Assembly: GCF_029016485.1 (NCBI RefSeq)
Contig: NZ_CP092106.1
Coordinates: 1,798,001-1,862,000 of the forward strand
DNA: 64,000 bases
Direction: 5' to 3'
Origin: Vibrio sp. JC009
Lineage (GTDB): Bacteria > Pseudomonadota > Gammaproteobacteria > Enterobacterales > Vibrionaceae
Positions 32,846 to 64,000 of this stretch are shown here, piece after piece. A program made the translations under genes and the position numbers. Below the pieces are notes generated by a model. That model searched no databases. It worked only from the letters and a program-made list of their open reading frames with translations, and was not told where the DNA came from. How positions within the stretch are numbered: position 1 is the first letter of the stretch; every line of letters starts with the position of its first letter.

Positions 32846-32869
32846 TTTGTGGTTACCAATAATTAAAAC

Positions 32870-43042: not shown

Positions 43043-43218
43043 GAGTTTTAATCTGGTTTTTTTGGGGTTATGGGGCTATGGGTTTGGGGGCTATGGGGGG
43101 TCGACTCCTCATCGCCCCATTTCCCTTTAACCTCTAAAGCCCAAAACTTTATCACCTCGTTCCCATGCTCCTGCGTGGGAACGAGGGACAGCTAACGGCT
43201 GAAAGCTTTATTAATACT
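43043..43218. repeat. GGGCTATGGG-type repeats and a REP hairpin
   Basis: Between nspC and the DUF2442 gene: three GGCTATGGG/GGTTATGGGG-like units (about 43068-43104), then a REP palindrome CTCGTTCCCA...TGGGAACGAG (43156-43185) in inverted orientation relative to the others. The GGCTATGGG units recur at 44187-44260 and inside the decarboxylase gene at about 45740-45890. Confidence 0.7.
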
Positions 43219-43731
43219 TCAAACATGCAGCCTTGTTGTTCGGTCTTTCGCGATTTCGATTATTGCGTGGCCTAATTGCACTAGAGTGCCATAATTCGGC
43301 TTGGTTTCTGGTTTTAGTGAACGATAGGCGCTGGTTCTGCTTTTAATTCCGGCTCTTTTGATTACGTCTTTGTGGCCGAAGTATTCGACATAGGAACGAA
43401 TCGCTGCCTGAAGTATATCCGGACGACCTTCCTGCATAGACTCCCATGATGCTTGTTTGATCACAGCTTCTATGTCGTTTATATTGATAATCAATTCCGG
43501 CTTTTTCCTTGTACCAACAGATATTGCGCGGAGAGTTTCAGCAGAAAGCTCATTGCCGCTCCAGCTTAGTGAACCATCTGCAGTCAATGCGAAACGTTTA
43601 AAATCACTCAGCTCAGAAAATGGCGGCTTAGAGAAATACTCTGTCAGATCTGCACGGCCGCAAAATCCGTCACTAAACGTGAGTTCCAGAATATAATCTT
43701 TATGTAAATCGACATCTAAGATCTTTAGCAT
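43219..43731 (-). CDS. DUF2442 protein with C-terminal XRE-like helix-turn-helix
   Basis: 170 residues. The N-terminal half (ILDVDLHKDYILELTFSDGFCGRADL; DGSLSWSGNELSAETL) fits DUF2442, found in antitoxin-like proteins often paired with DUF4160 toxins. The C-terminal half (KDVIKRAGIKSRTSAYRSLKPETKPNYGTLVQLGHAIIEIAK) looks like a helix-turn-helix. The ribosome site AGGTGA lies six bases upstream. No toxin gene is adjacent. It sits, flanked by repeats, in the middle of the norspermidine cluster and looks like a later arrival. Confidence 0.7.
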   Translation of the reverse strand: MLKILDVDLHKDYILELTFSDGFCGRADLTEYFSKPPFSELSDFKRFALTADGSLSWSGNELSAETLRAISVGTRKKPELIININDIEAVIKQASWESMQEGRPDILQAAIRSYVEYFGHKDVIKRAGIKSRTSAYRSLKPETKPNYGTLVQLGHAIIEIAKDRTTRLHV

Positions 43732-44284
43732 AAGTCACCTAACTTTCCGCATCATTATCAGTATTCCTACTTAGGTATTATAGTTTGGTCTCGTTTAAGA
43801 GACAAAGAATACTCCTCCCCTTAACCTCGAAAGGCCGGATTTACGAAGAAGTAGCATCCAAGGGGAGGCTGGGAGGGGTTGCTTCTCATGGAATTAAACA
43901 TTTGTGATCTAGCCATGCTTGTATAAGCAACCCCCTCTAACTCCCCCTTCTATTAACTTCATCAGCCAATTTGGCTTCAGCGTCTAAGGGGGAGAACCGT
44001 TCTTTGGCTACTTAACCTAAGTAATCTAGTTATTACCCTCGTTCCATACATATCCCGCGTGGAAATGTATCTTGGTTTAAGGTGTATTGCTTGGTTCCGG
44101 GTATCGCAACAGTTTAAAGGCGCTAAAAGCATGTATAGGAGACGTTGTGCTGGATGCAGATTCTTTAAGTCCGGTATGCATTTGGGCTATAAGGCTATGG
44201 GGGATGAAGGCTATAGGGATTCAACACCCCATAGTCCCCTCACCCTATAGCCCTAAAAACCACCAAGCTTCTATCGCGGTAACC
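43732..44284. repeat. Long palindromic repeats and degenerate REP
   Basis: No gene. It contains a complete unit of the CCTCCCCTTAACCTCGAAAGG family (43806-43882), a unit of the CCCCCTCTAACTCCCCCTT family (43929-44017), a degenerate REP (about 44038-44072) and GGCTATGGG/CCCATAGTCC repeats (44187-44260). The same pair of long units recurs at 51060-51275 and in the tandem array at 52781-53575. Confidence 0.75.
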
Positions 44285-45529
44285 TTACTTAAGAACCTGA
44301 ATATCCGGCTGCCCCACTTCCAGCTCCTGAACCCCCCAGTCCAGGCCGATTTCTGGCATGGTTTCCAGGAACGGGTCCGGATCTAGTTGTTCCATGTTAA
44401 ATACGCCTGCGTCTGCCCACTTGCCGCGGAAGTACTGAAGTGCTGCTGTGATTGCAGGTACACCTGTGGTGTAAGAGATTGCCTGGTGCTCTACGTCTTC
44501 GTAGGCCACTTCGTGATCTGCGTTGTTGTAGATAAATACGCTGCGCTCTTTACCGTCTTTCTTGCCCTGAACCCAGGTACCGATGCAGGTTTTACCTGTG
44601 TAGCCCGGTGCCAGTGAAGTTGGGTCTGGCAGCATTGCTTTTAGTACGTGCAGAGGCTGAACAACCGTGCCGTCATGCAGAGTCAGCGGATCCGGGCTAA
44701 GAAGGCCGATATCGCGCATGCAGTTGAAGTAGTTCAGGTATTTGTCGCCAAAGCCCATCCAGAACTCGATACGCTTCGCCGGGATGAATTCCTGCATGGA
44801 ACGCACTTCATCGTGAGCCATAGAATAAACTTTGTGCTTACCAACCAGAGGGAAGTCAAACTCAAACATACGAGAGTGGCAAGGAACCTGTTTCCACTCG
44901 CCGTTTTCCCAGTAGAAAGAGTCGCCCTGGATTTCAAGCATGTTGGTTTCAGGGTCGAAGTTGGTTGCGAACTTCTTGCCGTGGTCGCCTGCGTTTACGT
45001 CCATTACGTCAATTGTGTCGATTTCATCGAACAGGTGCTTCACAGCGTAGGCTGCGAAAACACTTACTACGCCCGGATCGAAACCAGCGCCAAGGATGCC
45101 TGTGATGCCTGCTTCTTTAAACTTGTCACGGAATTCCCACTGCCAGTCGTAAGCCTGAGGAACCTGCTGGCCTTCTGAGCACAGGTCTACCGCTACTGAA
45201 GTATCAAGGTATGACACCTTCGCCTGCAGACACGCTTCCATAATGGTGATGTTTACCCACGGAGGACCTGCGTTAATAACAAGATCAGGCTTAACTTCTT
45301 TGATAAGCGCAACCAGAGCGTCTACGTCGTCAGCATTTACCGCGCGCGCTTCCAGCTTCTTCGTTGTGTCTTTCAGATTGTTTTTGTTTTTGATTGATTC
45401 GATGATTTTTTCACACTTGCTGATTGTGCGTGAAGCCAGCGTGATATCACCAAGTACATCGTTATTCTGTGCTGCTTTGTGTGCAACAACCCATCCAACG
45501 CCACCGGCACCGATCTGTAAAATAGCCAT
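44285..45529 (-). CDS. carboxynorspermidine dehydrogenase (saccharopine dehydrogenase family)
   Basis: About 415 residues from the ATG at 45529 (MAILQIGAGGVGWVVAHKAAQ). The frame continues to 45580 but that would overlap the preceding gene, and the Rossmann motif belongs at the very N-terminus. It condenses aspartate semialdehyde with diaminopropane or putrescine, using NADPH, to carboxynorspermidine/carboxyspermidine. Markers: INAGPPWVNITIMEACLQ, GILGAGFDPGVVSVFA, SMAHDEVRSMQEF. Only 13 bp follow the decarboxylase stop, so it is co-transcribed. Confidence 0.93.
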   Translation of the reverse strand: MAILQIGAGGVGWVVAHKAAQNNDVLGDITLASRTISKCEKIIESIKNKNNLKDTTKKLEARAVNADDVDALVALIKEVKPDLVINAGPPWVNITIMEACLQAKVSYLDTSVAVDLCSEGQQVPQAYDWQWEFRDKFKEAGITGILGAGFDPGVVSVFAAYAVKHLFDEIDTIDVMDVNAGDHGKKFATNFDPETNMLEIQGDSFYWENGEWKQVPCHSRMFEFDFPLVGKHKVYSMAHDEVRSMQEFIPAKRIEFWMGFGDKYLNYFNCMRDIGLLSPDPLTLHDGTVVQPLHVLKAMLPDPTSLAPGYTGKTCIGTWVQGKKDGKERSVFIYNNADHEVAYEDVEHQAISYTTGVPAITAALQYFRGKWADAGVFNMEQLDPDPFLETMPEIGLDWGVQELEVGQPDIQVLK

Positions 45530-45542
45530 AGTGTGTTTTTCC

Positions 45543-47222
45543 TTATAAGGTTTCAGCCAGCTCAGATGCCAGCGTATCAATTTGATTTAACAGGTTTTCA
45601 AAATCTGACAGGGTCAGACATGGGTTTAGTATTGTGAATTTCAGGGCGGATTTTCCGTCGACTGTGGTTTCGCCGAGTACTGCTATTCCGCGGGTTAAGG
45701 CTTCGACGCGAACCTTTTGGTTTAGGGCGTCTAGATCAGGGCTATGGGGCTCTGGGCTAGGGGCTATGGGGGTGTTTGCGCCTGTTGTTATGGTGCCTGT
45801 CCCTTCAACTGGGTTATCAACTAAAGGTGCCTGTCCCTGTAAGAGATCAGGGTTATGGGGGGCTGGGCTATGGGCTATGGGGGTTTCGGTGCTCGTTGTT
45901 GGGGCGCCTGTTGGGGCGCCTGTCCCTGTAATTTTTGTGGTGCCTGTCCCCTTAACTGAGGTGCCTGTCCCTTTAAGGCGGAACAGGACAGTTGAGAGGG
46001 ATGGTTTTGCCAGCAGTTCGAAGCTGCTGTGGGCGTTTACCATTTCTGCTACTTGTTGTGTCTGTTCCAGCAGGTGATCGTACATTTCGCCTAGCGCGGC
46101 CGGGCCTACGTTTTGCATTGTCATGAAAACTTTCAGGGCGTCGAAGCGTTTTGTGGTGGCGATGGACTTGTCTACCAGGTTTGGTAGTTCATCGTGTTCG
46201 CGGTTCAGGTAGTCTGCGTGGTGTAGCAGGTACTTGAAGTTGGCTTTGTCTTTTAAAAGGACTGCGCCGCAGCTGATTGTCTGATAAAACAGTTTGTGGA
46301 AGTCTACGCTTACAGAGCTTGCGCGCTCGATCCCTTTCAGGCGGGATTTGTAGCTGCTCAGGATAAGTGAGCCGCCGTATGCACCGTCTACATGAAGCCA
46401 GAGGTTTTCGTTTTCTGCAATATCTGCCAGGGCGTCAATATCGTCGATTGCGCCGTGATCTGTGGTTCCTGCAGTGGCTACAAGAGCAAAAGGAATCAAA
46501 CCTTCTTCTTTTGCCTTAGCGACGGTTTCTTTTAGGGAATCTACCTTCATTGTGCCGTCTTCGTGAGTATCCACACACAGTACAGCACGTTCACCAAGGC
46601 CCATAATTGAAGCGGTTTTCTGCACTGTGAAGTGAGATTTCTTAGAGCACAGGATTCGCAGATCCGCAGCATACTCAGGAAGACCCAGCTTCTGGATAGA
46701 GTGACCGCTGATTTTATCTGCAACCCAGTCGCGAGCCAGAAGAAGACCCATCTGGTTTGACTGAGTGCCGCCACTGGTGAAGATACCGTCAGCTTTTTCG
46801 CCCAGCTCGTATTTTTCACACAGCCAGTCGACCACTTTCTGCTCAACATAAGTTGCAGCAGAGGCCTGATCCCAGGAGTCCATTGACTGGTTTAATACAG
46901 CGATAATCGCCTCTGCCACAATCGCCGGCATTAGCGGTGGCGTGTGCAGGTGCGCGATGCAGTTTGGATGCTGAACTATGATGGAGTTCTTTGCTACCAG
47001 AGCGGTTGCTGTATCGATAACCGATTTAAGCGACTGATTGCCGCTGTCTAAATCAATAGCGTTAATTGCCTGCTCAAGCTTAGCAGGCTCAAGGCCGGAG
47101 TATGGCTTATCCAGCGTTTCAAACAACGCTTTCAGATTGCTGTTTGTGTGCGCCATTACCGATGCGTATTCATCTGCACCATTTGCGCCGGTATGAACAA
47201 AGTGTTTTTGCCAGTTGGACAT
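45543..47222 (-). CDS. ddc: L-2,4-diaminobutyrate decarboxylase with repeat-derived insert
   Basis: 559 residues. A group II PLP decarboxylase making 1,3-diaminopropane for norspermidine. PLP lysine K310 (SVDFHKLFYQ), with HVDGAYGG (277-284) and FTSGGTQSNQ (148-157). Residues about 418-496 are an unusual Gly/Thr/Pro-rich insert between the conserved VLFRLK and DLDALNQKVRVEALTRG, encoded by intergenic-type repeats. The start overlaps the aminotransferase stop by one base (TAATG). In V. cholerae the two activities are, to my knowledge, fused in one protein; here they are separate. Confidence 0.92.
   Translation of the reverse strand: MSNWQKHFVHTGANGADEYASVMAHTNSNLKALFETLDKPYSGLEPAKLEQAINAIDLDSGNQSLKSVIDTATALVAKNSIIVQHPNCIAHLHTPPLMPAIVAEAIIAVLNQSMDSWDQASAATYVEQKVVDWLCEKYELGEKADGIFTSGGTQSNQMGLLLARDWVADKISGHSIQKLGLPEYAADLRILCSKKSHFTVQKTASIMGLGERAVLCVDTHEDGTMKVDSLKETVAKAKEEGLIPFALVATAGTTDHGAIDDIDALADIAENENLWLHVDGAYGGSLILSSYKSRLKGIERASSVSVDFHKLFYQTISCGAVLLKDKANFKYLLHHADYLNREHDELPNLVDKSIATTKRFDALKVFMTMQNVGPAALGEMYDHLLEQTQQVAEMVNAHSSFELLAKPSLSTVLFRLKGTGTSVKGTGTTKITGTGAPTGAPTTSTETPIAHSPAPHNPDLLQGQAPLVDNPVEGTGTITTGANTPIAPSPEPHSPDLDALNQKVRVEALTRGIAVLGETTVDGKSALKFTILNPCLTLSDFENLLNQIDTLASELAETL
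45735..45971 (-). repeat. Repeat insertion inside the decarboxylase coding sequence
   Basis: About 237 bp, in frame. On the plus strand GGTGCCTGTCCC occurs at 45792, 45826, 45939 and 45960, with the variant GGCGCCTGTCCC at 45915. GGCTATGGG/GGTTATGGG units occur at about 45740-45772 and 45849-45884. The two motif types alternate in two similar blocks, which suggests duplication. GGCTATGGG units also occupy intergenic sites at 43068-43104 and 44187-44260. Confidence 0.85.
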
Positions 47223-48652
47223 TACTTCTGTTCCTCTTTAGCACCACCAGAGATAAGAATCGCTTCTTCCAGCGTGCGCAGCGCAAAGTCAATCTGCTCA
47301 AATGAGATAATCAGTGGCGGAAGGAAACGGATAACAGAGCCTTCACGACCGCCCTTCTCTACCATCAGGCCGCGCTCAAGAGCAGCGCGCTGGATTTTCA
47401 GCGTCAGTTCAGGGTCAGCAACGCGCTCACCAAAGCGGTTCTCTTCACCGGATGGCTTAACGATTTCAACGCCCAGCATCAGACCTTTACCGCGAACTTC
47501 AACCACACAACCTGTGCGCTCCTGAATCTTTTCAAGGCCCATACGCAGGTAGTTACCCGCAACATTGGCGTGCTCTACCAGATTATCACGCTCGATAATC
47601 TCAAGGGCTTTAGCGCCGGAAACCATCGCCAGCTGGTTGCCACGGAATGTACCTGTGTGCTCACCCGCTTTCCAGGTGTCGATCTCTTTGTTAAATACCA
47701 GAAGCGACATTGGCAGACCGCCGCCAATGGCTTTAGAAAGACAAAGAATGTCCGGCGCAATACCCGCTTCTTCAAAGGCGAAGTTGTAGCCGGTTTTGCC
47801 CACACCACACTGAATTTCATCAAAGATAAGCAGGATACCGTGCTCATCACAGATGCGGCGCAGCTCTTTTAGCCAGAATGCAGGAGCCGGGATAACACCG
47901 CCCTCGCCCTGTACCGGTTCAACGATAATCGCAGCTGGTTTTTGGATACCTGCTTCATCATCGTGAAGAAGGCGCTCAATATAACGAATGCTCTGCTTAG
48001 CACCGGCTTCACCGCCCATACCAAACGGACAGCGCAGGCTGTACGGGAACGGCATAAAGTGAACGTCTGACATCAGACCGGTACGGCGCGCTTTGGTACC
48101 CAGGTTACCCATCATACCCATGGTGCCGTTGGTCATACCGTGGTAGGCACCGCGGAAGGCAAACATGGTGTTGCGGCCTGTGGTCTGTTTCGCCAGCTTG
48201 ATAGCCGCTTCTACCGCATCCGCACCTGAAGGACCGCAGAACTGAATTGCTGAGTTCTTGGCAAAATCTTGCGGAAGAAAAGCTTTTACTGCTTTGATAA
48301 AGCGGTCTTTTGATTCTGTTGTAATATCCAGCGTCTGATACGGCAGACCTGAATCTAACTGATCTTTCAGTGCCTGGTTAATTTCCGGGTGGTTATAACC
48401 CAGTGCCAACGTACCTGCACCGGCCAGGCAGTCTAAGAAAAGCTGACCACGGGTGTCTTCCACTAATGCGCCGTAGGCACGCTTAATGGCAAGAGGAAGA
48501 CGGCGTGGATAAGAGCGCACTTCTGATTCGTGCTCTTCCTGGTCCACAAGCAGCTGGTCAAGCGACAGATCGTAGACACCTTCAAGTACAGGCGTGTTTG
48601 TGTTGAATGGATTGTTTGCTTTATAAGTTTCCAGTTCCAGTACTGTGCTCAT
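47222..48652 (-). CDS. dat: diaminobutyrate--2-oxoglutarate aminotransferase
   Basis: 476 residues, class III PLP aminotransferase. It makes L-2,4-diaminobutyrate from aspartate semialdehyde with glutamate as amino donor. K307 in LCLSKAIGGGLPMS is the PLP lysine, with FDEIQCGVGKTG (277-288) and CGPSGADAVEAAIKLAK. It is the first gene of the norspermidine cluster, followed without gap by the decarboxylase. The N-terminal leader YKANNPFNTNTPVLEGVYDLSL is like that of the fused Vibrio enzyme. Confidence 0.94.
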   Translation of the reverse strand: MSTVLELETYKANNPFNTNTPVLEGVYDLSLDQLLVDQEEHESEVRSYPRRLPLAIKRAYGALVEDTRGQLFLDCLAGAGTLALGYNHPEINQALKDQLDSGLPYQTLDITTESKDRFIKAVKAFLPQDFAKNSAIQFCGPSGADAVEAAIKLAKQTTGRNTMFAFRGAYHGMTNGTMGMMGNLGTKARRTGLMSDVHFMPFPYSLRCPFGMGGEAGAKQSIRYIERLLHDDEAGIQKPAAIIVEPVQGEGGVIPAPAFWLKELRRICDEHGILLIFDEIQCGVGKTGYNFAFEEAGIAPDILCLSKAIGGGLPMSLLVFNKEIDTWKAGEHTGTFRGNQLAMVSGAKALEIIERDNLVEHANVAGNYLRMGLEKIQERTGCVVEVRGKGLMLGVEIVKPSGEENRFGERVADPELTLKIQRAALERGLMVEKGGREGSVIRFLPPLIISFEQIDFALRTLEEAILISGGAKEEQK

Positions 48653-53575: not shown

Positions 53576-54241
53576 TTAGAACCCGTAAGAAGCACCAAAT
53601 ACAAAGGCGTTATTGGTGTTGTCTGAACCATTACCCTGGTTGCGGTACTCGAAGTATGGCTGTACGCCTGCGCGGGTCCAGGTGGCGCGTAGCTCGTGGT
53701 CCATGGTGTCGTCACCTTCGTCGCGGATAACGTAAACGTTGTTGTAGCTTAGTGCCAGTTTTTCATTTACAACGTAACCAATACGGTTATCAAAGCGGGT
53801 TTCGTCACTTAGTCTGTCATCTTCCTGAGCATGGTAGCGGGTACGGTTGCTCAGAGACAGGCCGTTATCGAAGTTATAGCCGATTTTAAATAGCGGACGG
53901 TACTGTACTGTTTCACCGTTGTTGACTAAATGGTGGTAACCAACTGCTGCCCAGAAGTTATCGGTAATATTGAAAGCCTGTTCAACACCAAGCGTTACCC
54001 ATGGCGTAACCCCTTTCCCATGTTCATAGCTTTCATTGTCATAGCCGCCTAAACCAATACCATCAAACTCCGTAAGAATAGTAGTGCCAGAATCAAAAGT
54101 ATGGCCTGCTTCCAGTGTGGATGTCGCATCCGGCTGCGCATCCGAATGAAACTGCACATTACCGGTCACATAAGAAGAGCCTGCAAATGCGGTGGATGCG
54201 AAAGCCAAAGAAAGTGCGCTTAGGGGAATAATTCTTTTCAT
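53576..54241 (-). CDS. KdgM-family outer membrane porin
   Basis: About 221 residues from the ATG at 54241. The longer frame to 54346 would put the signal peptide internal. Signal peptide IIPLSALSLAFASTAFA, then alternating aromatic beta-strands, with GVTPWVTLGVEQAFNITDNFWAAVGYHHL and the terminal AFVFGASYGF ending in aromatic Phe, as usual for outer-membrane barrels. Size and pattern match small monomeric oligosaccharide porins such as KdgM (oligogalacturonate) and relatives. The substrate is not assignable. The third repeat unit abuts its stop codon. Confidence 0.8.
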   Translation of the reverse strand: MKRIIPLSALSLAFASTAFAGSSYVTGNVQFHSDAQPDATSTLEAGHTFDSGTTILTEFDGIGLGGYDNESYEHGKGVTPWVTLGVEQAFNITDNFWAAVGYHHLVNNGETVQYRPLFKIGYNFDNGLSLSNRTRYHAQEDDRLSDETRFDNRIGYVVNEKLALSYNNVYVIRDEGDDTMDHELRATWTRAGVQPYFEYRNQGNGSDNTNNAFVFGASYGF

Positions 54242-54631
54242 AATAATCTGCCTTTTTCTTAAATGGGTTCTCGTTGTTGTTTGTAAAACGGCATTAAAAC
54301 CGTTGGGGGATGAGAACGAGAGGCATGATGCGCCGGATTTTTCCATTCAGAAAATGACGTGCGATTTGCTGGAATAGAGCTCAAATGTCAAAAAAGATGA
54401 ACAGCATCAGAGCTTATTTTTCAATGAGTTAAGAGAATCATATGGAAAATTACGACATGATATAAATCCCTGCTTTGACCTGATTAGTCATATCTGCGCC
54501 CTTTTTCTGGTCGCAAATCACAGCGGATTTAGAAGTCATTTTTTGCAATTTAGAATTTTACAGGCGGGAGTTTGATTTAGCTCACAGAGCCCGGACTGGC
54601 TTTTCTTCGCCAGTCCGGTTGTTTTTATTGC
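54242..54631. other. Intergenic region with a strong hairpin
   Basis: No gene. It should contain the porin promoter. CCGGACTGGC (54591-54600) and GCCAGTCCGG (54609-54618) form a perfect 10-bp stem just 14 bp after the stop of the EAL-fusion gene. The T-rich side lies on the plus strand, so orientation is ambiguous, though it probably marks the 3' end of the minus-strand operon. A CRP-like half-matched site, TTTGA-N6-TCACA, lies at 54571-54586, far from any start. Confidence 0.5.
54591..54627. terminator. Hairpin at the end of the ExbB-EAL operon
   Basis: 10-bp GC-rich perfect stem with an 8-nt loop, followed on the plus strand by TTGTTTTTATT. As an intrinsic terminator it reads best on the plus strand, yet the only gene ending here is on the minus strand (stop at 54632). 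It may act in both directions. Confidence 0.55.
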
Positions 54632-56518
54632 TTACTCTTCAGGTTTTTCCACAATTTCAGCGTCTTCGATCTGCTGAGCACCTTCAGCACTTGCATCTTC
54701 TAAAAGCGTACTGCTGTTCAGCTTCTGTTCAAAGGCATCCACTTCCAGCGGTTTCTCAAAGTACCAGCCCTGGAACAGATTCAGGCCTTCGCCTTTCAGC
54801 AGTTCGAACTGCTCTTCGGTTTCAACGCCGTCAGCAGAAACGGTAATATTCAGCTGCTGAGCCAGTGACATTACCGAGCGCACAACCGCAACGCCGGACT
54901 GAGTGGCATCGGTCAGATTATTAACAATGGTACGGGCGATCTTCAGACGGTCAGGGTTGAACTCACTCAGGTGACCAATGTTGGTGTAGCCGGTACCGAA
55001 GTTATCGATAAACAGCTTCATGCCCATATTGTGCAGCTGACGGATCTTATCCTTGGCCTGTTCGTTATGCTGCATCAGCACATCTTCGGTTACCTCAAAG
55101 GCGATAGAGCCAGGCATAACATCGTACTGCTTAACGGTTTTCTCAACTTCAGTGATAAAGTTAGCAGCCAGAAGCAGTTCGCTGGTGGCGTTAATGGAAA
55201 CGGTCCAGTCCTGATCCCACATGCCCTGCTGCTGCCATTGGGAAACCTGTTGGATGGTATTGCGCATCACCCAGAGCTCAAGCTGAACAGAGACGCCCTC
55301 TTTCTTGGCGATATCAAACAGCTTACCGTTTGGAATCAGGCCACGAACCGGCTCAATCCAGCGGATATAAGATTCGGCACCGATAACGGTCTGGTCTTCA
55401 TTAAACTGAGGCTGGAATACCAGATGGAAGGCGTTCTCACGAATAGCCACATTTAAAGACTCTTCCAGAGGCAGCGCCGTTGCCACGCGGATATCATGCA
55501 AAATTTCAGCAACGCCCTGCAGCTGAACATTGGTATTGCTCAGAGCTTCAGTAAACGCTGAGTTAACGCGCTCAAACACCTGCCCATTCTGGATAATGTT
55601 CTCATTGGTGCGGTTAGAAGACTGCTCAATCAGGTAGCCCATTCTGTCGATCTCTGACGCCATATTAGTAATGGCGTTCACCATAGAGTGCGTCTGCTGC
55701 TGCATATAGTGCGAGTAATCGTTCAGAGAAGTTTCCATCTTCTGATACATATTGGTCTGCTCAGTATAAATCTGATTAACCTGCTCTGACTGCTGCACCG
55801 CAAGGCGGTTATTTTCAGCCAGGCTGTCGCTGAATGCCTGCACCACAGTTGAGCCTGAGTTGTTTTCCAGCAGAGTAAAGAGATCTGTCCAGACCTTGTC
55901 CTTGCTGTTGATCAGGTTTATGGTGTCGTCAATGGATTGCTGAACTTTTCTGAAGTTCTCATTGATAACCTGCTGCTGCTCTTCTGAAATACCGTCGATG
56001 GAATTGCCGGCTCCCGGACCTGATTCATCATCCGCACCCTGAACGTGCTCTTTTTCAAAAAATCCGTTCAGATAGTTAGAAGCAAGCAGAATACTTACCG
56101 AGGCACTTACACCGAGAATAGAGGTCAGGAAGGCAAAGGACATGGAGTCCAGAGCCGTACCGATGGAGCTCAGCAGCGCTTCCATTTTTTCCGAGAAGTC
56201 ACCGTCTGCGCCCATACCAGCTGCAATACCGGCGATCATTTCTGACAGACCGATAAAGGTACCGATAAGACCGAAAGAGACCGCCAGTGATGAGGCCAGT
56301 GTCACCTGACTTCTGAAGTGAGCGAGATGACTTGCATCCTTATACTTACGAATAAAGTTATACGCAAAAACAGAAAGCGGATAAAAGTAGGTCAGCGTGA
56401 TCAGTACCGTAATTTCAGGAGAAAGCGTAAGGCACTGAGAGACCAGTGCGTTCGCTGCCGGAAAGAAGTAAACAAACGCGGGTATGCCTAAATAAAGGAT
56501 TAAGCCAAAGATATACAT
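54632..56518 (-). CDS. ExbB/TolQ-like proton channel fused to a degenerate EAL domain
   Basis: 628 residues. Four N-terminal spans with the TolQ/ExbB/MotA signatures GLIGTFIGLSEM (83-94) and SIGTALDSMSFAFLTSILGVSAS (118-140). A long coiled coil follows (about 180-340), then an EAL domain (about 355-595). EAL residues kept: E382, N443, E475, D505, K526, E566, Q583. Changed: EAL reads ESY, DDFGTG reads DNFGTG, and AEGVE reads ADGVE. Loss of the second Asp predicts poor or no phosphodiesterase activity, so c-di-GMP sensing is more likely. It starts immediately after the ExbD-like gene stop (TAG-ATG). This fusion is not one I know. Confidence 0.88.
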   Translation of the reverse strand: MYIFGLILYLGIPAFVYFFPAANALVSQCLTLSPEITVLITLTYFYPLSVFAYNFIRKYKDASHLAHFRSQVTLASSLAVSFGLIGTFIGLSEMIAGIAAGMGADGDFSEKMEALLSSIGTALDSMSFAFLTSILGVSASVSILLASNYLNGFFEKEHVQGADDESGPGAGNSIDGISEEQQQVINENFRKVQQSIDDTINLINSKDKVWTDLFTLLENNSGSTVVQAFSDSLAENNRLAVQQSEQVNQIYTEQTNMYQKMETSLNDYSHYMQQQTHSMVNAITNMASEIDRMGYLIEQSSNRTNENIIQNGQVFERVNSAFTEALSNTNVQLQGVAEILHDIRVATALPLEESLNVAIRENAFHLVFQPQFNEDQTVIGAESYIRWIEPVRGLIPNGKLFDIAKKEGVSVQLELWVMRNTIQQVSQWQQQGMWDQDWTVSINATSELLLAANFITEVEKTVKQYDVMPGSIAFEVTEDVLMQHNEQAKDKIRQLHNMGMKLFIDNFGTGYTNIGHLSEFNPDRLKIARTIVNNLTDATQSGVAVVRSVMSLAQQLNITVSADGVETEEQFELLKGEGLNLFQGWYFEKPLEVDAFEQKLNSSTLLEDASAEGAQQIEDAEIVEKPEE

Positions 56519-56962
56519 CTAGTTTATCTCCCATTCCACTGTCGATAATACATTTGTTGTTGTTTGCATTGAGGTTTCAACCTTTATTTCTGACGGCAAC
56601 TTTAAATAGGCTAAAAGTCGCATTAAATTGACGGTATTTTTTTTCACATCATCCCTGCTGTGAATAATTATTTTTACTTTTTTTGCCTCGAGCATTTGTG
56701 AACGGATCTGCTCGATAAATTCCTTTTCTAATTTAAAGTTAATCAGGTATTCGAACTGGTGTTCATCCAGATTAGCGCGCATCACATCGTGGTAAACGAT
56801 GGGGCTGTACTTGTTTTCATCAATATCGTTGATTGAGTGCTGCTTTGCGGCCGAACTTAATGAGGTGGCTGTCTGCAGCATAAAGAAAATACTGACCAGA
56901 ACCATTAAGATCAAAGCGGAAGACAGTGCATCCACAAAGGGGGCCAGAGTATCATCATCCAT
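56519..56962 (-). CDS. ExbD/MotB-like single-span membrane protein
   Basis: 147 residues from the ATG at 56962, which overlaps the upstream stop by eight bases. The frame extends to 57031, but that would overlap by 77 bp. One span near residues 9-29 (PFVDALSSALILMVLVSIFFML) holds Asp11 at the position of the proton-carrying Asp of ExbD/TolR/MotB. The periplasmic remainder (FEYLINFKLEKEFIEQIRSQMLEAKKVKIIIHSRDDVKKN...) has a beta-alpha-beta look but no OmpA peptidoglycan-binding motif that I can see. It is a natural partner of the ExbB-like half of the next gene. Confidence 0.78.
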   Translation of the reverse strand: MDDDTLAPFVDALSSALILMVLVSIFFMLQTATSLSSAAKQHSINDIDENKYSPIVYHDVMRANLDEHQFEYLINFKLEKEFIEQIRSQMLEAKKVKIIIHSRDDVKKNTVNLMRLLAYLKLPSEIKVETSMQTTTNVLSTVEWEIN

Positions 56963-57419
56963 CACTCTCTCCTGTATTTCCGGTTGAAGGCGCTTTTTTA
57001 CCGCTCTCTTCAGGGAAGAGATGGATATCAATAAAGCAACTGTTCATTCTGTCATCTTGTGACACAACATTAATATGCTCGATGGGGTATGAGCCGGCGA
57101 AAAACTGGTTTAGCGAAATATAATTAAAAGTCGCAATATGCACCATTTCATTTTCATTGGTATTAAAACCAAAATTGCACCCGGTCTGATAAGACTTAAC
57201 CCTGTCATTAAAACTCATGCCGTCCACCGTCAGCACCAGGTCTTTCAGCACTTCCCGGCTGACATATGGCGTTTGCAGGTTATAACGGTAAGTCACTTCA
57301 TCAATCTTAATCAGACCTGTGGTTGGCATGATAGATTGCACAAAGCCGATAAGGCTGGATATAACAACCAGTATTATCACGGCCAGTGAGGCTGTAATAG
57401 CGGCAACAAACCCTATCAT
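56955..57419 (-). CDS. small inner-membrane protein of the ExbB-EAL operon
   Basis: 154 residues. One N-terminal span (GFVAAITASLAVIILVVISSLIGFV) and a periplasmic domain of about 120 residues with two cysteines (SYQTGCNFGF and MNSCFIDIHL) that could form a disulfide. No family recognised. It lies between the HlyD-like and ExbD-like genes with zero-gap (TAG-ATG) and overlapping junctions. A structural part of the machine, for instance linking the channel to the adaptor, is inferred from order alone. Confidence 0.7.
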   Translation of the reverse strand: MIGFVAAITASLAVIILVVISSLIGFVQSIMPTTGLIKIDEVTYRYNLQTPYVSREVLKDLVLTVDGMSFNDRVKSYQTGCNFGFNTNENEMVHIATFNYISLNQFFAGSYPIEHINVVSQDDRMNSCFIDIHLFPEESGKKAPSTGNTGESDG

Positions 57420-58658
57420 CTACCACACCTCAAACTTAATTTCATCTGGTAACACACTTAATATAAACCCGAGCACACTGACTTTATCGTTAACAACAAA
57501 AACCTGAACATCCATACCAAGATCAAGAGACAAATCCAGGAACTCATCATCGGGCTGAATGGTCACCCGGTAATAACGTTGCCCTGCGTGGCTTTGATCT
57601 TCATAACTAATAGAGTCAGAACTCAATTCTATAATGGTGCCGTTGAAGATTTCATTAAATCCCGGCGAATTAATCTTCAACCGCACTTTTCGTCCAATAC
57701 TTAAGAAATGGCGGTAGCGGGAATCAAACTTAGCTTCAACCTGCTGCGATGCCCCTTTCTTTTTCAGAACAAACAGAGGCGCAGCTTCCTGAATAAAGGT
57801 GCCGGTGGAGAGCCCTTCGGTCAGCTCCAGAATGCTGCCGTCAATAGGAGAACGGATAACCGATTTAAGCTTCTTCTCTTCCAGCAGTCTTTTGGTGTAT
57901 TTCTGCTGGGTAATAAGGGGCTGAATTTTGTCTATCTGCTCTTCAAGCGACAACAGGCGCTCTGAACGGCGCATCTGGAATACCATCAGTTTGTCATTAA
58001 GCTTTTTGGTGGCATCGATGGAAGAGATCTGGTGGTTAATCACTTCCGTCTTAACGTTGGAGAGCTCAGTGTCTACATCGTAAAAACTGACGGTTGCCCC
58101 TTTACCACGGCGCAACGCGTTTTTCTTTTTAGTCAGGATTTCTTCTTTGTTCAGCAGTTCGCGCTCTTTTCGCTGCCTTTCCTGCTCAACATTGAGGATG
58201 TAGTGCTGCTCTTGCAGATAGTCTTCGTAAAAACTCAGGATATACAGGCCACCCGCGCTGGCTAAAAGCGCTGTGCCTTCACAGCCATGATCCAGTTTCT
58301 CTCTGGTCACCGAAGCAAACTGTGGCCCGGTTAAGAAACAGCGCTCGTTGTGATACACATTGAGCAGCTTTTCATTCTGCTCCAGCTCTTCACTGGTCTG
58401 CTTCAGACGGTATTCATCTTCCAAATTGCGGTACTTTAACAGCGGCTGCCCTTCCGTCACTTCCTGCCCCTGAGCCACCATCAGCTCCACAATATAACTG
58501 CTGGTTGGCGCTTTAACCGAGACGTTACTCTGCTTAATACCGGTAAGACCGGTGCCCGGCGCAACCACCTCCACTTCCTTATAAAGCAGAATATAAACGA
58601 CCGCCACAATGGCCAGTGCCGCTAATATCAGTTTATTTCGGTGTTTGCGTAGGTTCAT
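57420..58658 (-). CDS. HlyD-like periplasmic adaptor (membrane fusion protein)
   Basis: 412 residues. One span (10-28), a half-lipoyl motif VKAPTSSYIVELMVAQGQEVTEGQPLL, a long alpha-hairpin (about 75-270), the returning half SVIRSPIDGSILELTEGLSTGTFI and a beta-barrel domain with GRKVRLKINSPGFNEIFNGTI. Such adaptors bridge an inner-membrane engine and a TolC-type channel, normally with an ABC transporter in type I secretion. No ABC gene is adjacent; ExbB/ExbD-like genes take its place. Confidence 0.88.
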   Translation of the reverse strand: MNLRKHRNKLILAALAIVAVVYILLYKEVEVVAPGTGLTGIKQSNVSVKAPTSSYIVELMVAQGQEVTEGQPLLKYRNLEDEYRLKQTSEELEQNEKLLNVYHNERCFLTGPQFASVTREKLDHGCEGTALLASAGGLYILSFYEDYLQEQHYILNVEQERQRKERELLNKEEILTKKKNALRRGKGATVSFYDVDTELSNVKTEVINHQISSIDATKKLNDKLMVFQMRRSERLLSLEEQIDKIQPLITQQKYTKRLLEEKKLKSVIRSPIDGSILELTEGLSTGTFIQEAAPLFVLKKKGASQQVEAKFDSRYRHFLSIGRKVRLKINSPGFNEIFNGTIIELSSDSISYEDQSHAGQRYYRVTIQPDDEFLDLSLDLGMDVQVFVVNDKVSVLGFILSVLPDEIKFEVW

Positions 58659-58689
58659 TGCTTACTTATGCTTCCGGGAAAATTCTCAA

Positions 58690-60210
58690 TCACAGTAACT
58701 TCTGTGATTTCAGGGTTTCTAATTCGTACAGGGTATCGAACAAGTTTAAATCAATTTCAAGCAGAGTTTGTTTAGCGTTGTTCAACTTTTTAATACTGTC
58801 TACGATATCCTTGTAGGTTACCTGGTCCGTGTATATCTCTTCTTTCTGGTTCTCAATCAGTCCGGCCAGGATATCGACCTGATCCGCTGTTTTCTGGCGT
58901 TTAATCTGCTGCTGGTTGTAGTTGGTCAGATTCGTTCTGAACTGATCCATATATTGCTTATACTGCTTATCAAATCTTAGCTTTTCCGCCTCATACATTT
59001 TATAAGCCGAGTCCTGATCTGCCTGGGTACCCTGGTTAAACAGATCCAGCTCCAGGTTCAGCTGAATATAAGACTCATCAGTATCGCCCCAGGAGTGGCT
59101 ATTGGTGTCGCCATTGGTCATCAGGTAGTTTTCAGAGGTCAGTTCAACGGTAAAACGTTCACGGGTAGCCTGAGCGTTATAGAGTGAGGATTTCAGGTTT
59201 TTCTGAATCTTTCTTAGCTCAGAGTTAGTGGCTATCAGCTCTTTTGGCGTTATTTCCGGAACGTCCATCGCCAGATATGGCTCAAGGCGTTGGTAGTTGA
59301 CACCAATTTTATCCATGGAGATATTTTCATCCGTCCCCAGATCGATCCCCGTCTCTTCACTCAGCTTTTTAAAGTACTGCTCAATATTTGAAACTACCGA
59401 GTATACAGAGTCATCAAACTCCGCTACGGAAAGCTTAGCTTCCATTGCATCGGTCTGGGTGGAAACACCCTCGTTTGTGGAATTCACCTGCTTCAGGTAA
59501 TAGATCTCTATTTCTTTACGGAACTCTTCCGCTGTTTTTTCATATTGCCGTGTCAGTTCTACTTTGGTTAAATATTTTAAAACGGTGTAATAAATGGATA
59601 TTTCCTGAGCTTCTAAGCTGATATTTCCTGCATCCAGTGACTGTTGACTGGCGGCAATTTTATCTTTTACTGCACTGCCATAAAGTTTTGAATTCAGCTT
59701 GAGTATGAACTTCTGAGTTTCTGTGGCATCCGGTGTCGGGCTGCCGTAATATTTTGTGGTCTCAGAGTTCATTGTCGCCGTCGGGTAGTAATACTTCTCT
59801 TCTTTGTCTTTTAGAATGGTCTTTGAGTCTACTTCTTTACCAAGTGCGTGATATTCCTTTGAGCTGCTTAGGGCCAGTTCAAAAACATCATCAAAATTAA
59901 GCAGGTAGCCGTCTTTTGGCGTCAATAAAACCGGCTCAGAAACGGCCTCTTCCGGCTCGCTGAGCTCAATGGCTAAATTTTCGGTTTCCTGAGTTTCCGG
60001 TGCTTTGGTTTCTGCAATTTCTGATTCAACGGTTTCAGTTTGTTGAGGTTTTTCCTCAGCAGATTCTGCAACCATTTCTGCTGCCGGTTTATTATTTACG
60101 TCAGAAGAAAGCTGAGGTTCTTTATTCAGAGATTTACATCCCCACAATAAAACACAACCGCAACAAGTTAGCACAAATTTATAACATGCCACTTTCTTAT
60201 AATTTCTCAT
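58690..60210 (-). CDS. TolC-like outer-membrane efflux lipoprotein
   Basis: About 506 residues from the ATG at 60210. A TTG twelve bases earlier (60222) is an alternative. Signal sequence with lipobox LLWGC (Cys25), then an acidic Glu/Thr/Pro linker (about 30-95), then two OEP repeats (YLLNFDDVFELALSSSKEY; YIQLNLELDLFNQGTQADQDSAYKMYEAEKL). The outer membrane factor fold and position before the HlyD-like gene support a tripartite duct. It is the first gene of the five-gene operon; 31 bp separate it from the next. Confidence 0.85.
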   Translation of the reverse strand: MRNYKKVACYKFVLTCCGCVLLWGCKSLNKEPQLSSDVNNKPAAEMVAESAEEKPQQTETVESEIAETKAPETQETENLAIELSEPEEAVSEPVLLTPKDGYLLNFDDVFELALSSSKEYHALGKEVDSKTILKDKEEKYYYPTATMNSETTKYYGSPTPDATETQKFILKLNSKLYGSAVKDKIAASQQSLDAGNISLEAQEISIYYTVLKYLTKVELTRQYEKTAEEFRKEIEIYYLKQVNSTNEGVSTQTDAMEAKLSVAEFDDSVYSVVSNIEQYFKKLSEETGIDLGTDENISMDKIGVNYQRLEPYLAMDVPEITPKELIATNSELRKIQKNLKSSLYNAQATRERFTVELTSENYLMTNGDTNSHSWGDTDESYIQLNLELDLFNQGTQADQDSAYKMYEAEKLRFDKQYKQYMDQFRTNLTNYNQQQIKRQKTADQVDILAGLIENQKEEIYTDQVTYKDIVDSIKKLNNAKQTLLEIDLNLFDTLYELETLKSQKLL

Positions 60211-60222
60211 CTGATCGTACAA

Positions 60223-60457
60223 TTCCTAAACAGCTCACTGATAATACAGTGCCTAAAAGCGCGCGCGTAAATAGCCATGTTAGAGCAGCCTCTAACCTAA
60301 AGCAATAACTCAGGGTTAAGTATACTATTAATATATTTCATTTTTAAATAGCTAATTTTTATCTTTGAGGTTCATCCTGATTAAATAATAGGACAAAAAA
60401 ACGCCAGTCAGGTAACTGACTGGCGTTATTAGGTTTTATTATGAAGCTTGTTTCAGA
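60223..60457. promoter_or_regulatory. Region between adhesin terminator and TolC-like gene
   Basis: The operon promoter should lie here on the minus strand. The section 60320-60390 is very AT-rich (tattaatagtatac on the minus strand would give a TATAAT-like -10), but no unambiguous -35/-10 pair was assigned. No gene. Confidence 0.35.
60394..60427 (-). terminator. Intrinsic terminator of the adhesin gene
   Basis: On the minus strand AACGCCAGTCAG (60427-60416), a four-base loop, CTGACTGGCGTT (60411-60400), then a T run. The stem is 12 perfect base pairs. It lies about 30 bp after the adhesin stop, so most adhesin transcripts should end here, separate from the secretion-like operon that follows. 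Confidence 0.93.
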
Positions 60458-63400
60458 TTACAAGTCAGGATCTGAGAACGTTGTTTCGTTACCTGCCGCA
60501 TCCTCAATGGTAATGACAATATCATGAGACGAGTCAGCCGCTCCGGAAGTATCTATGGTTGCTTTACCGGTCGTATCAATATCAGACATATCGACATCTA
60601 CCTCCTGACCATCCAGAAGCGCTGTAATATTGCTGATGCCTGAGCCAGTGCCGTCTGCAACATCAAAACTAATCTCATTAGCCGATTCATCATCCACCAC
60701 ATTGCTTATCGTCGGAGCTACCGTATCCACATTCAATGTGCCATTAACGGTAGATGAAGTATTACCTGCACTGTCCGTAATTGAGATTGAGTAGGTATGT
60801 TCACCATCCGCTAAGGCTGTATCCGGCGTTATGCTCCAGCTTCCGTCATCAGAATCAGAAGTTACGCTGTAAGATGCCTCAGTCCCGGTACCAGAATCAG
60901 TGATAGTAAGGGTCACGGTCGCACTGGTTTCCGTTGTACCTTCAAAGGTCGGCTGGTTATCGTTGGTCCAGTCTCCGGTGGCCAGTGTGCCGGTATCATC
61001 GGTGGAACCGCTGGTAACGTCATCCGTCACTGTGACACCACCGGTTAATGTCGGTGCATCTGTGTCCACATCCAGAAGCACATCCAGGTTAGACAGGCTG
61101 ACATTCCCTGCACTATCGGTTGCTGTAATCGCAACTGAAACATCATCCTGTGTACCAGACAAACCTAGGTCATCTGCCGTTACACTCCAGTCACTGCCAG
61201 CACTTACCTCAATACTATAGTCATCCGAGCCGTCATTATTGGCATCAAATACTAAGGTGACATCTTCGTCAGCCTGGCCTGAAATGGAATTCACGCTGGT
61301 AGAGGTTGTTACGCCCGGAGCAACATTATCATAAACCACCGTTTCTGATGTGGTGTTGGTATTACCATAAATATCGGTTACCGCCACCAGAATCGTATAG
61401 GTGCCTGCCGCTGCAAGTGTCACTGTACCCGATGTGCTTGTGGAGCTGCTGCTCCAGGTTGAACCGCCGTCAATGGAGTACTTCCAGCTTGCACCTGACT
61501 CAATACCGGAAACTTCAATGGTATTGTCGTTGGTATAACCCGCCTCACCAGATGCATTGTAGGTAAATGTCACACTACTCACATCAGGCGCGGTGGTATC
61601 CAGCGCAACGTTCAGAGTGCCGTTTGTGGTTGAGGAAGTATTTCCTGCACTGTCTGTGATGGAGATGGAGTAACCATAGCTGCCATCCTGCAATTCGGCT
61701 CCTGAAGTAATGCTCCAGTTACCGTCAGAGGTGGTAACAGTATAAGTTTCTGTTCCAATGGTCAGCGTTACCGTCGCTCCCGCTTCAGTGGTACCTGAGA
61801 AGGTTGGCTGGCTATCGGCTGTTGAGTAGTTATCAGCCGATGTCGCCGTTAGCGCTCCGCTGACATCACTGACCGCGTAGCTTGCTGATGTTGGAGCCAG
61901 TGTATCCACATCCAGAGTCAGAGTGCCCAGGTCGGTAACATTACCGGCACTGTCTGTTGCTGTTACCGAGACAGATTTATCACCGTCAGTATCCGTCAGC
62001 CCAAGATCAGCCGCAGTCACACTCCAGTTATCACCGGCACTGACCACTTTTTCCAGATCCACAGAGCCGTTGTTATCAACATCAAACTTAAGCGTTACTG
62101 TTTCATCCGTATCACCGGAAATGGTGTTCACACTGGTCGATGCGTTTACAACAGGATCTGTGCTGTCATAAATCACCGTTTCTGATGTGATGCTGGTATT
62201 ACCTGCGCTATCGGTTACCGAAACCAGAATCGTGTTAGTGCCTTCACTGGTCAGCGTGATGGTACCAGAGGTTGTGTCAAAGCTGTCACTCCAGGTTGAA
62301 CCGCCATCTGTGGAGTACTTCCAGCTGGAGTTAGCTTCAATGCCTGAAACTTCGATGGTGCTGTCATTGGTGTACCCGGCATCACCATTTTCATCATAGG
62401 TGAAGGTGACGGCATCCGGTGCATCAGTATCGAGCGTCACGCTCAATGATGCCGTGGCAGAAGTGCCCGCTTCATTGGTCTGGTTCACTTCAATTGCATA
62501 AAGCGCATCAGAGCCAATATCTGTCAGCGTAATAATGGCGACACCATCAGCATCCGGAGTCAGGGTATAACTCGTTCCATTGACTGTGCATGAGTAGCTT
62601 GATTCGGTAATACCGCTTACTGTGATGCTTGGATCGTTGGTAATTTCTGTATCATCACCCGTCTGGTTGTAGGAAATAACCGGTGTAGTCGGAGTACTCA
62701 GATCCACGGTTACAGCTGAACCTATCGTAATTGGTTCACTTTCGCTGCCACTGACATCTAGCTGTTTAACCAGAATCGTATTCTCAGTATAAGTACCCGC
62801 CGGAAGTTCAAAAGTACCGCTGTAAGTTCCTGAACCTGCATCGTTAACCGTTGAGCCTGAGTACCAGTTTGTTCCATCAAAGGAGTACATCCAGCTATTA
62901 CCGGAAGTAATACCTGAAACGACTACTGTAGAATCATTGGTTACATAGTCAGCCGCGCCAGAGTCACTCTGAAGGCCAACCGAGAAGGATGCATCTGTTG
63001 TCACCGTTGTTTCAGTGATAGTGATATCTGACAAAATGGTTTCTGTTGAGTTACCTGCACTGTCTGTCACCGTGACCTTCACTTCGGAATAAGTACCAGG
63101 AGCTAATTCGAAGGTATCGCTATCCAGCTTATTCGCTCCGGTTGTCCAGTCGGAATCCCCTTCCAGTTTGTACTCATAAGTCCAGCTATCACTGCTATCA
63201 GCAAGAGTGACATCGACTTTGCCGTCATTGGTGATGCTGTCACCGTCAACACCGGTATCATCCTGAAGCGCTACCGTCGCTGCACCTGGTGCGGTTGTAT
63301 CCACAGTAACTGCAGAAGATGAACTAACAGTGGCACTTACATCACCACTTGAATCCACCTGTTTAACCTGAATATAACCGACATCATAAGTACGGTCTTC

Positions 63401-64000
63401 ATCAAGATTAAAGCTAACGCTGTAGGTGCCGTCATCATTTAGCGTCATTGTGCCTGAGCCAACATACCAGGTCTCACCAGCATCAACAGAGTACATCCAG
63501 TTGCTGCTTGCATCTGTGAAGCCGGAAACCGTAACGGTTGCGTTATCTGAAGGATCACTATCGGTATTATCCGGCAGTATCAACTCCAGTGTGTCGAACC
63601 CATCTGTGATAGTCACTTCTGACAATGTGGTCACGGTTGAGTTACCGGCCTGATCGGTCACAGTTACCGATACATTGGTATAAGTACCTCCGGCAGGAAG
63701 TGAGAAACTGGTGCCTGTCCCTGTATCAGAAACCGTGCCGTCTGTGCCTGTGTAACTGTATGACCAGGTTGCTGCATCAAACTCAGCAGGCAGACCAACA
63801 TCGATAGTACCGACGTTAGACACATAATCACCGGTTACCCCTGTATCTGTTGCCAGTGACAGGGTCGCCGCTTCCGGCGCTACGGTATCAATTTCAATCG
63901 ACTGAGAGGTTTCGCTGCTTACGTTGCCCACATTATCGATCTGGCGGATAACCAAATCGTAAGAGCCGTCAGCAAGCGTAATCGTCTTGCTATCACTGCC
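60458..64000 (-). CDS. giant Ig-like repeat adhesin (N-terminal part beyond window)
   Basis: 1180 residues visible, open at the right edge. It is built of bacterial Ig-like domains (about 75-100 residues each) rich in Asp, Thr, Ser and Gly, with the recurring strand-end motif TDSAGNTS. A larger module of three domains (GYTNDSTIEVSGIE; STSVNTISGDTDE; GTTEAGATVTLTIG) is repeated twice at about 60.7-62.4 kb. The protein is acidic, with many Asp-rich loops suiting calcium binding. The C-terminus ends EDAAGNETTFSDPDL with no RTX nonapeptide (GGxGxD) repeats, so it lacks the usual type I secretion tail. Probably a biofilm or surface adhesin. Confidence 0.88.
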   Translation of the reverse strand, partial: GSDSKTITLADGSYDLVIRQIDNVGNVSSETSQSIEIDTVAPEAATLSLATDTGVTGDYVSNVGTIDVGLPAEFDAATWSYSYTGTDGTVSDTGTGTSFSLPAGGTYTNVSVTVTDQAGNSTVTTLSEVTITDGFDTLELILPDNTDSDPSDNATVTVSGFTDASSNWMYSVDAGETWYVGSGTMTLNDDGTYSVSFNLDEDRTYDVGYIQVKQVDSSGDVSATVSSSSAVTVDTTAPGAATVALQDDTGVDGDSITNDGKVDVTLADSSDSWTYEYKLEGDSDWTTGANKLDSDTFELAPGTYSEVKVTVTDSAGNSTETILSDITITETTVTTDASFSVGLQSDSGAADYVTNDSTVVVSGITSGNSWMYSFDGTNWYSGSTVNDAGSGTYSGTFELPAGTYTENTILVKQLDVSGSESEPITIGSAVTVDLSTPTTPVISYNQTGDDTEITNDPSITVSGITESSYSCTVNGTSYTLTPDADGVAIITLTDIGSDALYAIEVNQTNEAGTSATASLSVTLDTDAPDAVTFTYDENGDAGYTNDSTIEVSGIEANSSWKYSTDGGSTWSDSFDTTSGTITLTSEGTNTILVSVTDSAGNTSITSETVIYDSTDPVVNASTSVNTISGDTDETVTLKFDVDNNGSVDLEKVVSAGDNWSVTAADLGLTDTDGDKSVSVTATDSAGNVTDLGTLTLDVDTLAPTSASYAVSDVSGALTATSADNYSTADSQPTFSGTTEAGATVTLTIGTETYTVTTSDGNWSITSGAELQDGSYGYSISITDSAGNTSSTTNGTLNVALDTTAPDVSSVTFTYNASGEAGYTNDNTIEVSGIESGASWKYSIDGGSTWSSSSTSTSGTVTLAAAGTYTILVAVTDIYGNTNTTSETVVYDNVAPGVTTSTSVNSISGQADEDVTLVFDANNDGSDDYSIEVSAGSDWSVTADDLGLSGTQDDVSVAITATDSAGNVSLSNLDVLLDVDTDAPTLTGGVTVTDDVTSGSTDDTGTLATGDWTNDNQPTFEGTTETSATVTLTITDSGTGTEASYSVTSDSDDGSWSITPDTALADGEHTYSISITDSAGNTSSTVNGTLNVDTVAPTISNVVDDESANEISFDVADGTGSGISNITALLDGQEVDVDMSDIDTTGKATIDTSGAADSSHDIVITIEDAAGNETTFSDPDL

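What the first reader, a model, noticed from the sequence alone, without database searches (positions are those of the whole stretch)
54632..64000. Proton-channel genes in place of an ABC transporter beside an adaptor, outer-membrane duct and giant adhesin
Seen: a tight five-gene operon (TolC-like lipoprotein, HlyD-like adaptor, small membrane protein, ExbD/MotB-like protein, ExbB-like protein with EAL domain) next to a giant Ig-like adhesin. Established: HlyD plus TolC pairs normally work with an ABC ATPase in type I secretion; ExbB/ExbD, TolQ/TolR and MotA/MotB use the proton motive force to move envelope parts. Inference: this may be a proton-driven tripartite machine that secretes, displays or releases the adhesin, or moves another polymer, under c-di-GMP control.
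Basis: partly seen in the sequence, partly recalled or inferred. Interest (0 to 1): 0.85.

Follow-up and report, generated by a model that had tools for sequence, protein, structure and literature searches.

The report
Giant adhesin secretion with proton channel
A marine Vibrio carries an ATP-driven export system for a one-megadalton surface adhesin, next to a Salmonella SiiAB-like proton channel that has a c-di-GMP-reading domain fused onto it, so the cell may hold or release its adhesin in direct response to a second messenger.

Summary
The five genes and the giant Ig-like adhesin are real. The headline claim, proton-channel genes in place of an ABC transporter, is wrong. All 11 EAL-type genomes tested carry it.

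Not found in the papers searched: the ExbB/SiiB-like subunit is fused to an EAL domain. The relatives opened in other Vibrionaceae and on Escherichia and Photobacterium plasmids lack EAL. In the window two metal-ligand positions are changed and nucleotide-contact positions kept, suggesting a receptor; 13 of 40 relatives keep all ten canonical residues.

Best reading: ATP exports, proton flow holds or releases, c-di-GMP switches. The last two steps are inferred.

The parts
60458..64000 (-). 3' part of the giant adhesin gene (continues beyond the window to contig C1:1888625; 10,055 aa, 1.04 MDa, pI 4.05, no internal stop)
   Evidence: PF19077 Big_13
60400..60427 (-). 12-pair terminator-like hairpin with T tail between adhesin and TolC gene
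   Evidence: L009:7400-7427; consensus match only
58690..60222 (-). TolC-like outer-membrane protein (OEP), with a lipobox-like N-terminus (LLWGC, read by eye); SiiC counterpart
57420..58658 (-). HlyD-like periplasmic adaptor; SiiD counterpart
56955..57419 (-). g3: one transmembrane helix plus periplasmic domain with Cys81 and Cys128, invariant in 26 of 26 and 19 of 19 aligned members; probable paralogue of g2; second SiiA/MotB-like subunit
56519..56962 (-). g2: ExbD/MotB/SiiA-like subunit, 147 aa, invariant Asp11 at the start of the transmembrane helix; periplasmic domain with predicted SiiA fold
54632..56518 (-). g1: ExbB/MotA/SiiB-like channel subunit joined through a variable linker to an EAL domain
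56048..56518 (-). channel part of g1 (residues 1-157)
54749..55462 (-). EAL domain of g1 (residues 353-590): ESY for EAL, N at RocR D296, D at RocR E352; Q161, E175, R179, N233, E265, D295, K316, Q372 equivalents kept

Best explanation
It is a type I secretion system of the SPI-4 (Sii) kind for a megadalton Ig-like adhesin. The ABC transporter beyond the adhesin gene exports the adhesin by ATP hydrolysis through HlyD and TolC, C-terminus first as described for SiiE. The conserved N-terminal module (a small conserved domain followed by a charged, helix-prone stretch) stays behind and anchors it. A separate inner-membrane proton channel, made of the ExbB-like g1 and two SiiA/ExbD-like subunits (g2 with the presumed proton-carrying Asp11, and g3), uses proton flow to hold or free that N-terminal plug, as SiiAB does for SiiE. 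The EAL domain fused to the C-terminal, presumably cytoplasmic end of g1 couples this to c-di-GMP: with c-di-GMP bound the channel favours retention, without it release. Shown: gene content, ABC, predicted SiiA fold, conserved TM aspartate, EAL residue pattern, family distribution. Inferred: proton conduction, retention/release as the output, and the direction of c-di-GMP control.
Confidence: 0.7

Rival explanations
1. The EAL domain is an ordinary phosphodiesterase docked on the channel: it lowers c-di-GMP locally, and the channel itself is not regulated by the nucleotide.
For: 13 of 40 relatives keep all ten canonical RocR-type residues, and Q161, E175, N233, E265, D295, K316 and Q372 are kept in 40 of 40. 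Two of 12 EAL-less loci have free-standing EAL genes near the adhesin.
Against: In the window's clade (12 of 40) D296 is N and E352 is D; 21 of 40 have lost D296. The EAL-bearing rows form one branch, though the search that gathered them excluded shorter proteins.
Confidence: 0.25
2. The proton channel helps power export of the exceptionally long adhesin (pulling or un-jamming the channel) rather than controlling its retention.
For: The substrate is 10,055 aa. At the place read by eye as the Q-loop, none of the 17 aligned ABC homologues has the usual glutamine, so help could be needed.
Against: In Salmonella, siiA/siiB deletion leaves SiiE secretion unaffected (review passage). The ABC keeps its other motifs.
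Confidence: 0.12
3. One reading: a tripartite machine driven by proton motive force, with no ABC transporter.
For: No ABC gene lies beside the five genes inside the window (ORFs of 80 aa or more from 48000 on).
Against: Dedicated ABC beyond the adhesin, and in 11 of 11 EAL-type genomes tested. In 6 of 8 genome loci it lies just downstream of g1, in two of them with one extra gene between.
Confidence: 0.02

Closest known systems
Salmonella SPI-4 type I secretion system (SiiA-SiiF) with giant adhesin SiiE
   Same: ABC, HlyD-type adaptor, TolC-type duct, giant Ig-domain adhesin, plus a Mot/Exb/Tol-type proton-channel pair whose SiiA domain matches g2 in predicted fold. SiiE has an N-terminal coiled coil; the window adhesin has a charged, helix-prone stretch there (home-made score).
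   Different: EAL domain fused to the SiiB-like subunit; two SiiA-like subunits; different gene order with a divergent or convergent ABC in the window's clade; adhesin 1.04 MDa against 595 kDa; no detectable sequence match to SiiA.
LapA/LapD/LapG c-di-GMP-controlled adhesin retention (also FrhA/CraA of Vibrio cholerae)
   Same: Giant adhesin kept at the surface through its N-terminus; a degenerate EAL domain as the c-di-GMP sensor (PMC3032553 passages; PMC6890996 passages).
   Different: Here the EAL sits on a proton channel, without GGDEF or HAMP; no di-alanine site in the first 330 aa of 12 of 12 adhesin N-termini. A LapG homologue lies on another contig of the genome.
Plasmid and Vibrionaceae relatives (E. 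coli, E. albertii, E. fergusonii, Photobacterium damselae), on the plasmids annotated as hypothetical / TolC / HlyD / ABC / Ig-like proteins
   Same: Same module g2, ExbB-like, TolC, HlyD, g3, ABC and a large Ig-like protein on the five plasmids opened (the TolC place is annotated hypothetical in L044).
   Different: ExbB-like subunit 265-352 aa, no EAL domain, in 12 of 12 such loci.
Ion-driven motors: TolQR, ExbBD, MotAB, ZorAB, AglRQS
   Same: Channel subunit plus one-helix subunits with a conserved TM aspartate; AglRQS also has two ExbD-like subunits (recalled; these motors and SiiAB are named together in a passage of PMC12204202).
   Different: Encoded with a type I secretion system; EAL domain on the channel subunit.

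Membership tests
Type I secretion system | dedicated ABC transporter with ATPase motifs | tested here: met
   (Q-loop Gln not seen in 17 of 17; catalytic Glu reads Asp in the plasmid homologue of L044)
Type I secretion system | HlyD-type adaptor and TolC-type outer-membrane protein | tested here: met
SPI-4 Sii system | giant Ig-domain (BIg) adhesin as neighbour and presumed substrate | tested here: met
   secretion itself not tested
SPI-4 Sii system | SiiA-like inner-membrane protein with SiiA periplasmic fold | tested here: met
SPI-4 Sii system | sequence homology to SiiA | tested here: inconclusive
   no 6qvp match at E<=10 with profiles A2, A3, A5, A6
SPI-4 Sii system | SiiB-like Mot/Exb/Tol channel subunit | tested here: inconclusive
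   PF01618 in 15 of 16 members at E<=1 but below cut-off in the window protein; SiiB sequence not available
SPI-4 Sii system | gene order siiABCDEF in one direction | tested here: not met
SPI-4 Sii system | channel controls adhesin retention by proton motive force | not testable with these tools
   needs experiment
Lap system (LapD/LapG) | LapG di-alanine cleavage site in the adhesin N-terminus | tested here: not met
   pattern [TAP]AA[GA] absent in the first 330 aa of 12 of 12 N-termini
Lap system (LapD/LapG) | LapD architecture with HAMP, GGDEF and EAL | tested here: not met
   only EAL above its cut-off in g1
Ion-driven motors (TolQR/ExbBD/MotAB) | conserved Asp in the TM helix of the small subunit | tested here: met
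   D11 invariant in 19 of 19 and 34 of 34
Active EAL phosphodiesterase | all metal ligands (RocR E175, N233, E265, D295, D296, E352) kept | tested here: not met
   window: D296 to N, E352 to D; 13 of 40 relatives keep all ten residues checked (residue roles from PMC7911125 passages)

The most novel reading that the evidence does not exclude
A proton channel of the SiiAB/ExbBD kind that is itself a c-di-GMP receptor: the second messenger, read by an EAL domain fused to the channel subunit, gates proton flow and so directly sets retention or release of a megadalton adhesin, without any protease. This would be a protease-free counterpart of LapD/LapG and a nucleotide-gated stator.
Probability: 0.45. 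Interest if true: 0.78.

Novelty: new variant of a known kind. Interest (0 to 1): 0.6.

Why it matters
[quoted passage not shown] A natural version in which a known signal-reading domain is fused to the channel subunit gives a handle on that question: mutating the EAL domain should move adhesin retention if the channel is the switch. It would also join two separate adhesin-control strategies, c-di-GMP (Lap) and proton motive force (Sii), in one protein. The family seems unnamed: its three channel genes are annotated as hypothetical in the five plasmid records opened.

Tried and rejected
Rejected: a machine without an ABC transporter. Rejected: that EAL is universal in this family. The protein search returned 40 of 40 with EAL, but its length limits exclude short relatives; 12 of 16 loci lack EAL.

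Tried without result: PDB profile searches. g2: ribosomal and splicing proteins at E 0.065 and above, and one MotB-like N-terminus at E 0.62. g3: one hit to the HalA entry 9nyi (E 0.0029, profile positions 2-48, the helix region), not followed. g1 channel part with the linkers: coiled-coil proteins, best E 5e-4. Profile-profile comparison of g2 with g3 was weak (probability 15); the paralogy rests and the predicted folds. Foldseek for g2 alone: no hit at E<=0.001, SiiA at rank 22. Plasmid search with g2: no match at E<=1e-5. The ABC was not found at E<=1e-30 in 2 of 10 genomes (drafts G081 and G306, EAL-less type). No TolC-like frame was recognised by my query in L044, L056, L057, L059 and L060, although L059 and L060 have one annotated. 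g2 profile hits in G665 and G673 were fetched but not analysed.

Papers: searches of the open-access library gave no description of an EAL-fused Sii-type channel (search 41 had 317 papers, of which 20 were listed; searches were about EAL residues and LapD). Subscription papers, including the original SiiAB papers, were not read. Of PMC12607715, PMC6272769, PMC7911125, PMC12204202, PMC10210961, PMC3032553 and PMC6890996 I saw passages only; PMC8277102 gave no passage for the terms tried.
Full report
Observation. The window is C1:1798001-1862000 of a 5.21-Mb genome in three contigs. At its right end, on the minus strand, lie an adhesin frame running off the window, then TolC-like, HlyD-like, a 154-aa one-helix protein (g3), a 147-aa one-helix protein (g2) and a 628-aa protein with an EAL domain (g1). 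HlyD, g3, g2 and g1 abut or overlap. Between adhesin and TolC is a 235-base gap with a 12-pair terminator-like hairpin (14 such sites found in the region against a mean of 7.4 in shuffles), so the five genes may be transcribed apart from the adhesin.

Beyond the window. Reading the adjoining 29 kb shows one uninterrupted adhesin frame of 10,055 aa, 1.04 MDa, pI 4.05. About 340 bases beyond its start, divergently, lies an ABC transporter of up to 666 aa (relatives begin at the later Met). Its ATPase domain is clear (E 3e-13), but no ABC_membrane match was seen at E<=0.1, and a generic ABC_membrane search of the own genome listed 14 other matches and not this one. Walker A, Walker B, signature and H-loop are recognisable in the 17 aligned homologues (in L044 the catalytic Glu reads Asp); at the place read by eye as the Q-loop none has glutamine.

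Co-occurrence. A scan of genome contigs with the g2 alignment gave 8 loci. All 8 have TolC, HlyD, g3, g2 and g1 in that order (HlyD in two frames in L014). In 6 of 8 the ABC gene follows g1, in two of them with one extra gene between; in L011 and L012 it was found on the same contig at the other end of the adhesin gene. Over 10 genome handles (G013 and the genome of L012 appear to be the same) each has exactly one ABC match at E<=1e-30; two more EAL-type genomes, G174 and G271, also have it. That is 11 of 11 distinct EAL-type genomes. In a sample of 148 genomes of the genus, 5 have the ABC at E<=1e-60, and all five carry g2; three further g2-bearing genomes of the genus (G180, G228, G271) are not among the rows shown. 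Of 8 EAL-less Vibrionaceae genomes tested, 6 have the ABC at E<=1e-30 and two drafts do not.

Wider family. tblastn of the ABC against plasmids found 56 records (29 Escherichia, 25 Salmonella, 1 Enterobacter, 1 Photobacterium; 23.7-26.1% identity in the 56 rows listed). Five of the 56 were opened. All five carry a g2-like gene (weak matches, E 2.5e-3 to 2.7e-7), an ExbB-like gene (E 4.5e-35 or better), HlyD, a g3-like gene (E 2.8e-9 or better), the ABC and an Ig-like protein; TolC is annotated in 4 of 5, and in the fifth (L044) a hypothetical gene stands at that place. The g2 profile finds 15 of 329 family genomes at E<=0.001; by the neighbourhoods read, 8 are EAL-type and 7 EAL-less (three of the eight assigned by identical coordinates to loci). 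Of 16 loci, 12 lack EAL. In a sample of 394 genomes of the order, a g1-channel profile matched 7 at E<=1e-8, two of them only partially, and the g2 profile matched 6 at E<=0.001. A tree of the channel part puts all 40 EAL-bearing rows on one side of a branch against 10 EAL-less rows (SH-aLRT 95; quick method, some long branches), in line with one fusion event; the 40 were gathered by a search whose length limits exclude shorter proteins.

The EAL domain. Using RocR roles quoted in PMC7911125 (passages; the roles of K316 and Q372 are recalled), the window protein keeps the Q161, E175, R179, N233, E265, D295, K316 and Q372 equivalents but has N for D296 and D for E352. This pattern is shared by 12 of 40 relatives; 13 of 40 keep all ten canonical residues. 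The window domain is therefore more likely a receptor than an efficient phosphodiesterase, while some relatives may be enzymes. LapD is the precedent for a degenerate EAL domain that binds c-di-GMP and controls an adhesin (PMC3032553 passages), though there the EAL motif glutamate itself is lost, which is not the case here.

The adhesin end that stays behind. The 12 adhesin N-termini at hand, from EAL and EAL-less loci, share a short region with a GFD/GFN motif, followed by a charged, helix-prone stretch (home-made score without a control; weaker in the three Escherichia plasmid rows). None has a LapG-type di-alanine site in its first 330 residues. SiiE is described with one coiled coil flanked by two beta regions that govern retention (PMC6272769 passages). 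The genome also has a LapG homologue on another contig (E 1.8e-14), within 3 kb of an ABC transporter (708-aa frame), so a Lap-type system probably exists in parallel.

Mechanism. In Salmonella, SiiC, SiiD and SiiF secrete SiiE; siiA/siiB deletion leaves secretion but impairs invasion of polarized cells; higher proton motive force raises surface retention and CCCP lowers it; how the force is used is called unclear (PMC12607715 and PMC6272769 passages). The simplest reading here is the same division of labour, with c-di-GMP plugged straight into the channel. Proton flow, retention control and the direction of the c-di-GMP effect are inferred.

Membership. It works like the SPI-4 system and is a type I secretion system by content. 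I do not file it as SPI-4 itself: gene order differs, a second SiiA-like subunit is present, sequence homology to SiiA was not detectable, and SiiB/SiiF could not be compared. It is a new variant: a Sii-like family, with an EAL-fused branch mostly seen in marine bacteria. The searches made of the held library (16, 17, 40, 41, 47, 55, 86, 87) gave no paper that describes the fusion; the library lacks most subscription papers.

Noticed in passing
window 41906-48652: By eye, genes for norspermidine synthesis (carboxynorspermidine decarboxylase, a saccharopine-dehydrogenase-like protein, DABA decarboxylase and aminotransferase); norspermidine is linked to c-di-GMP and biofilm in Vibrio (recalled).
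   Followed up: no
window 27951-38783: By eye, a bacterial cellulose synthesis (bcs) operon, another c-di-GMP-controlled surface structure (recalled) near the adhesin system.
   Followed up: no
window 10102-11256 and 12561-13715: Two 384-aa transposase-like genes, identical by eye (and pieces of a related one), inside the surface-polysaccharide region, with low-GC stretches around them.
   Followed up: no
G000 C2:1173586-1177281: LapG homologue (PF06035, E 1.8e-14) within 3 kb of an ABC transporter with a 708-aa frame: probably a separate Lap-type adhesin system.
   Followed up: partly
L015:12492-13394 and L018:12345-13238: The Marinomonas and Maribrevibacterium loci carry one extra protein of about 300 aa with a hydrophobic N-terminus between g1 and the ABC gene, with no Pfam match at E<=0.01.
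   Followed up: partly
L044:10708-11571 and L060:25648-27183: Two of 12 EAL-less loci have a free-standing EAL gene near the adhesin gene, perhaps the same c-di-GMP link in separate genes.
   Followed up: partly
adhesin, N-terminal half (L010): The Ig-like array seems to contain long higher-order repeats: a block of about ten motif spacings recurs in the list printed.
   Followed up: no
window 53576-54346: KdgM-like porin gene (PF06178, E 4e-8) downstream of the operon, same strand; no match to it at E<=0.001 in the 8 loci.
   Followed up: partly
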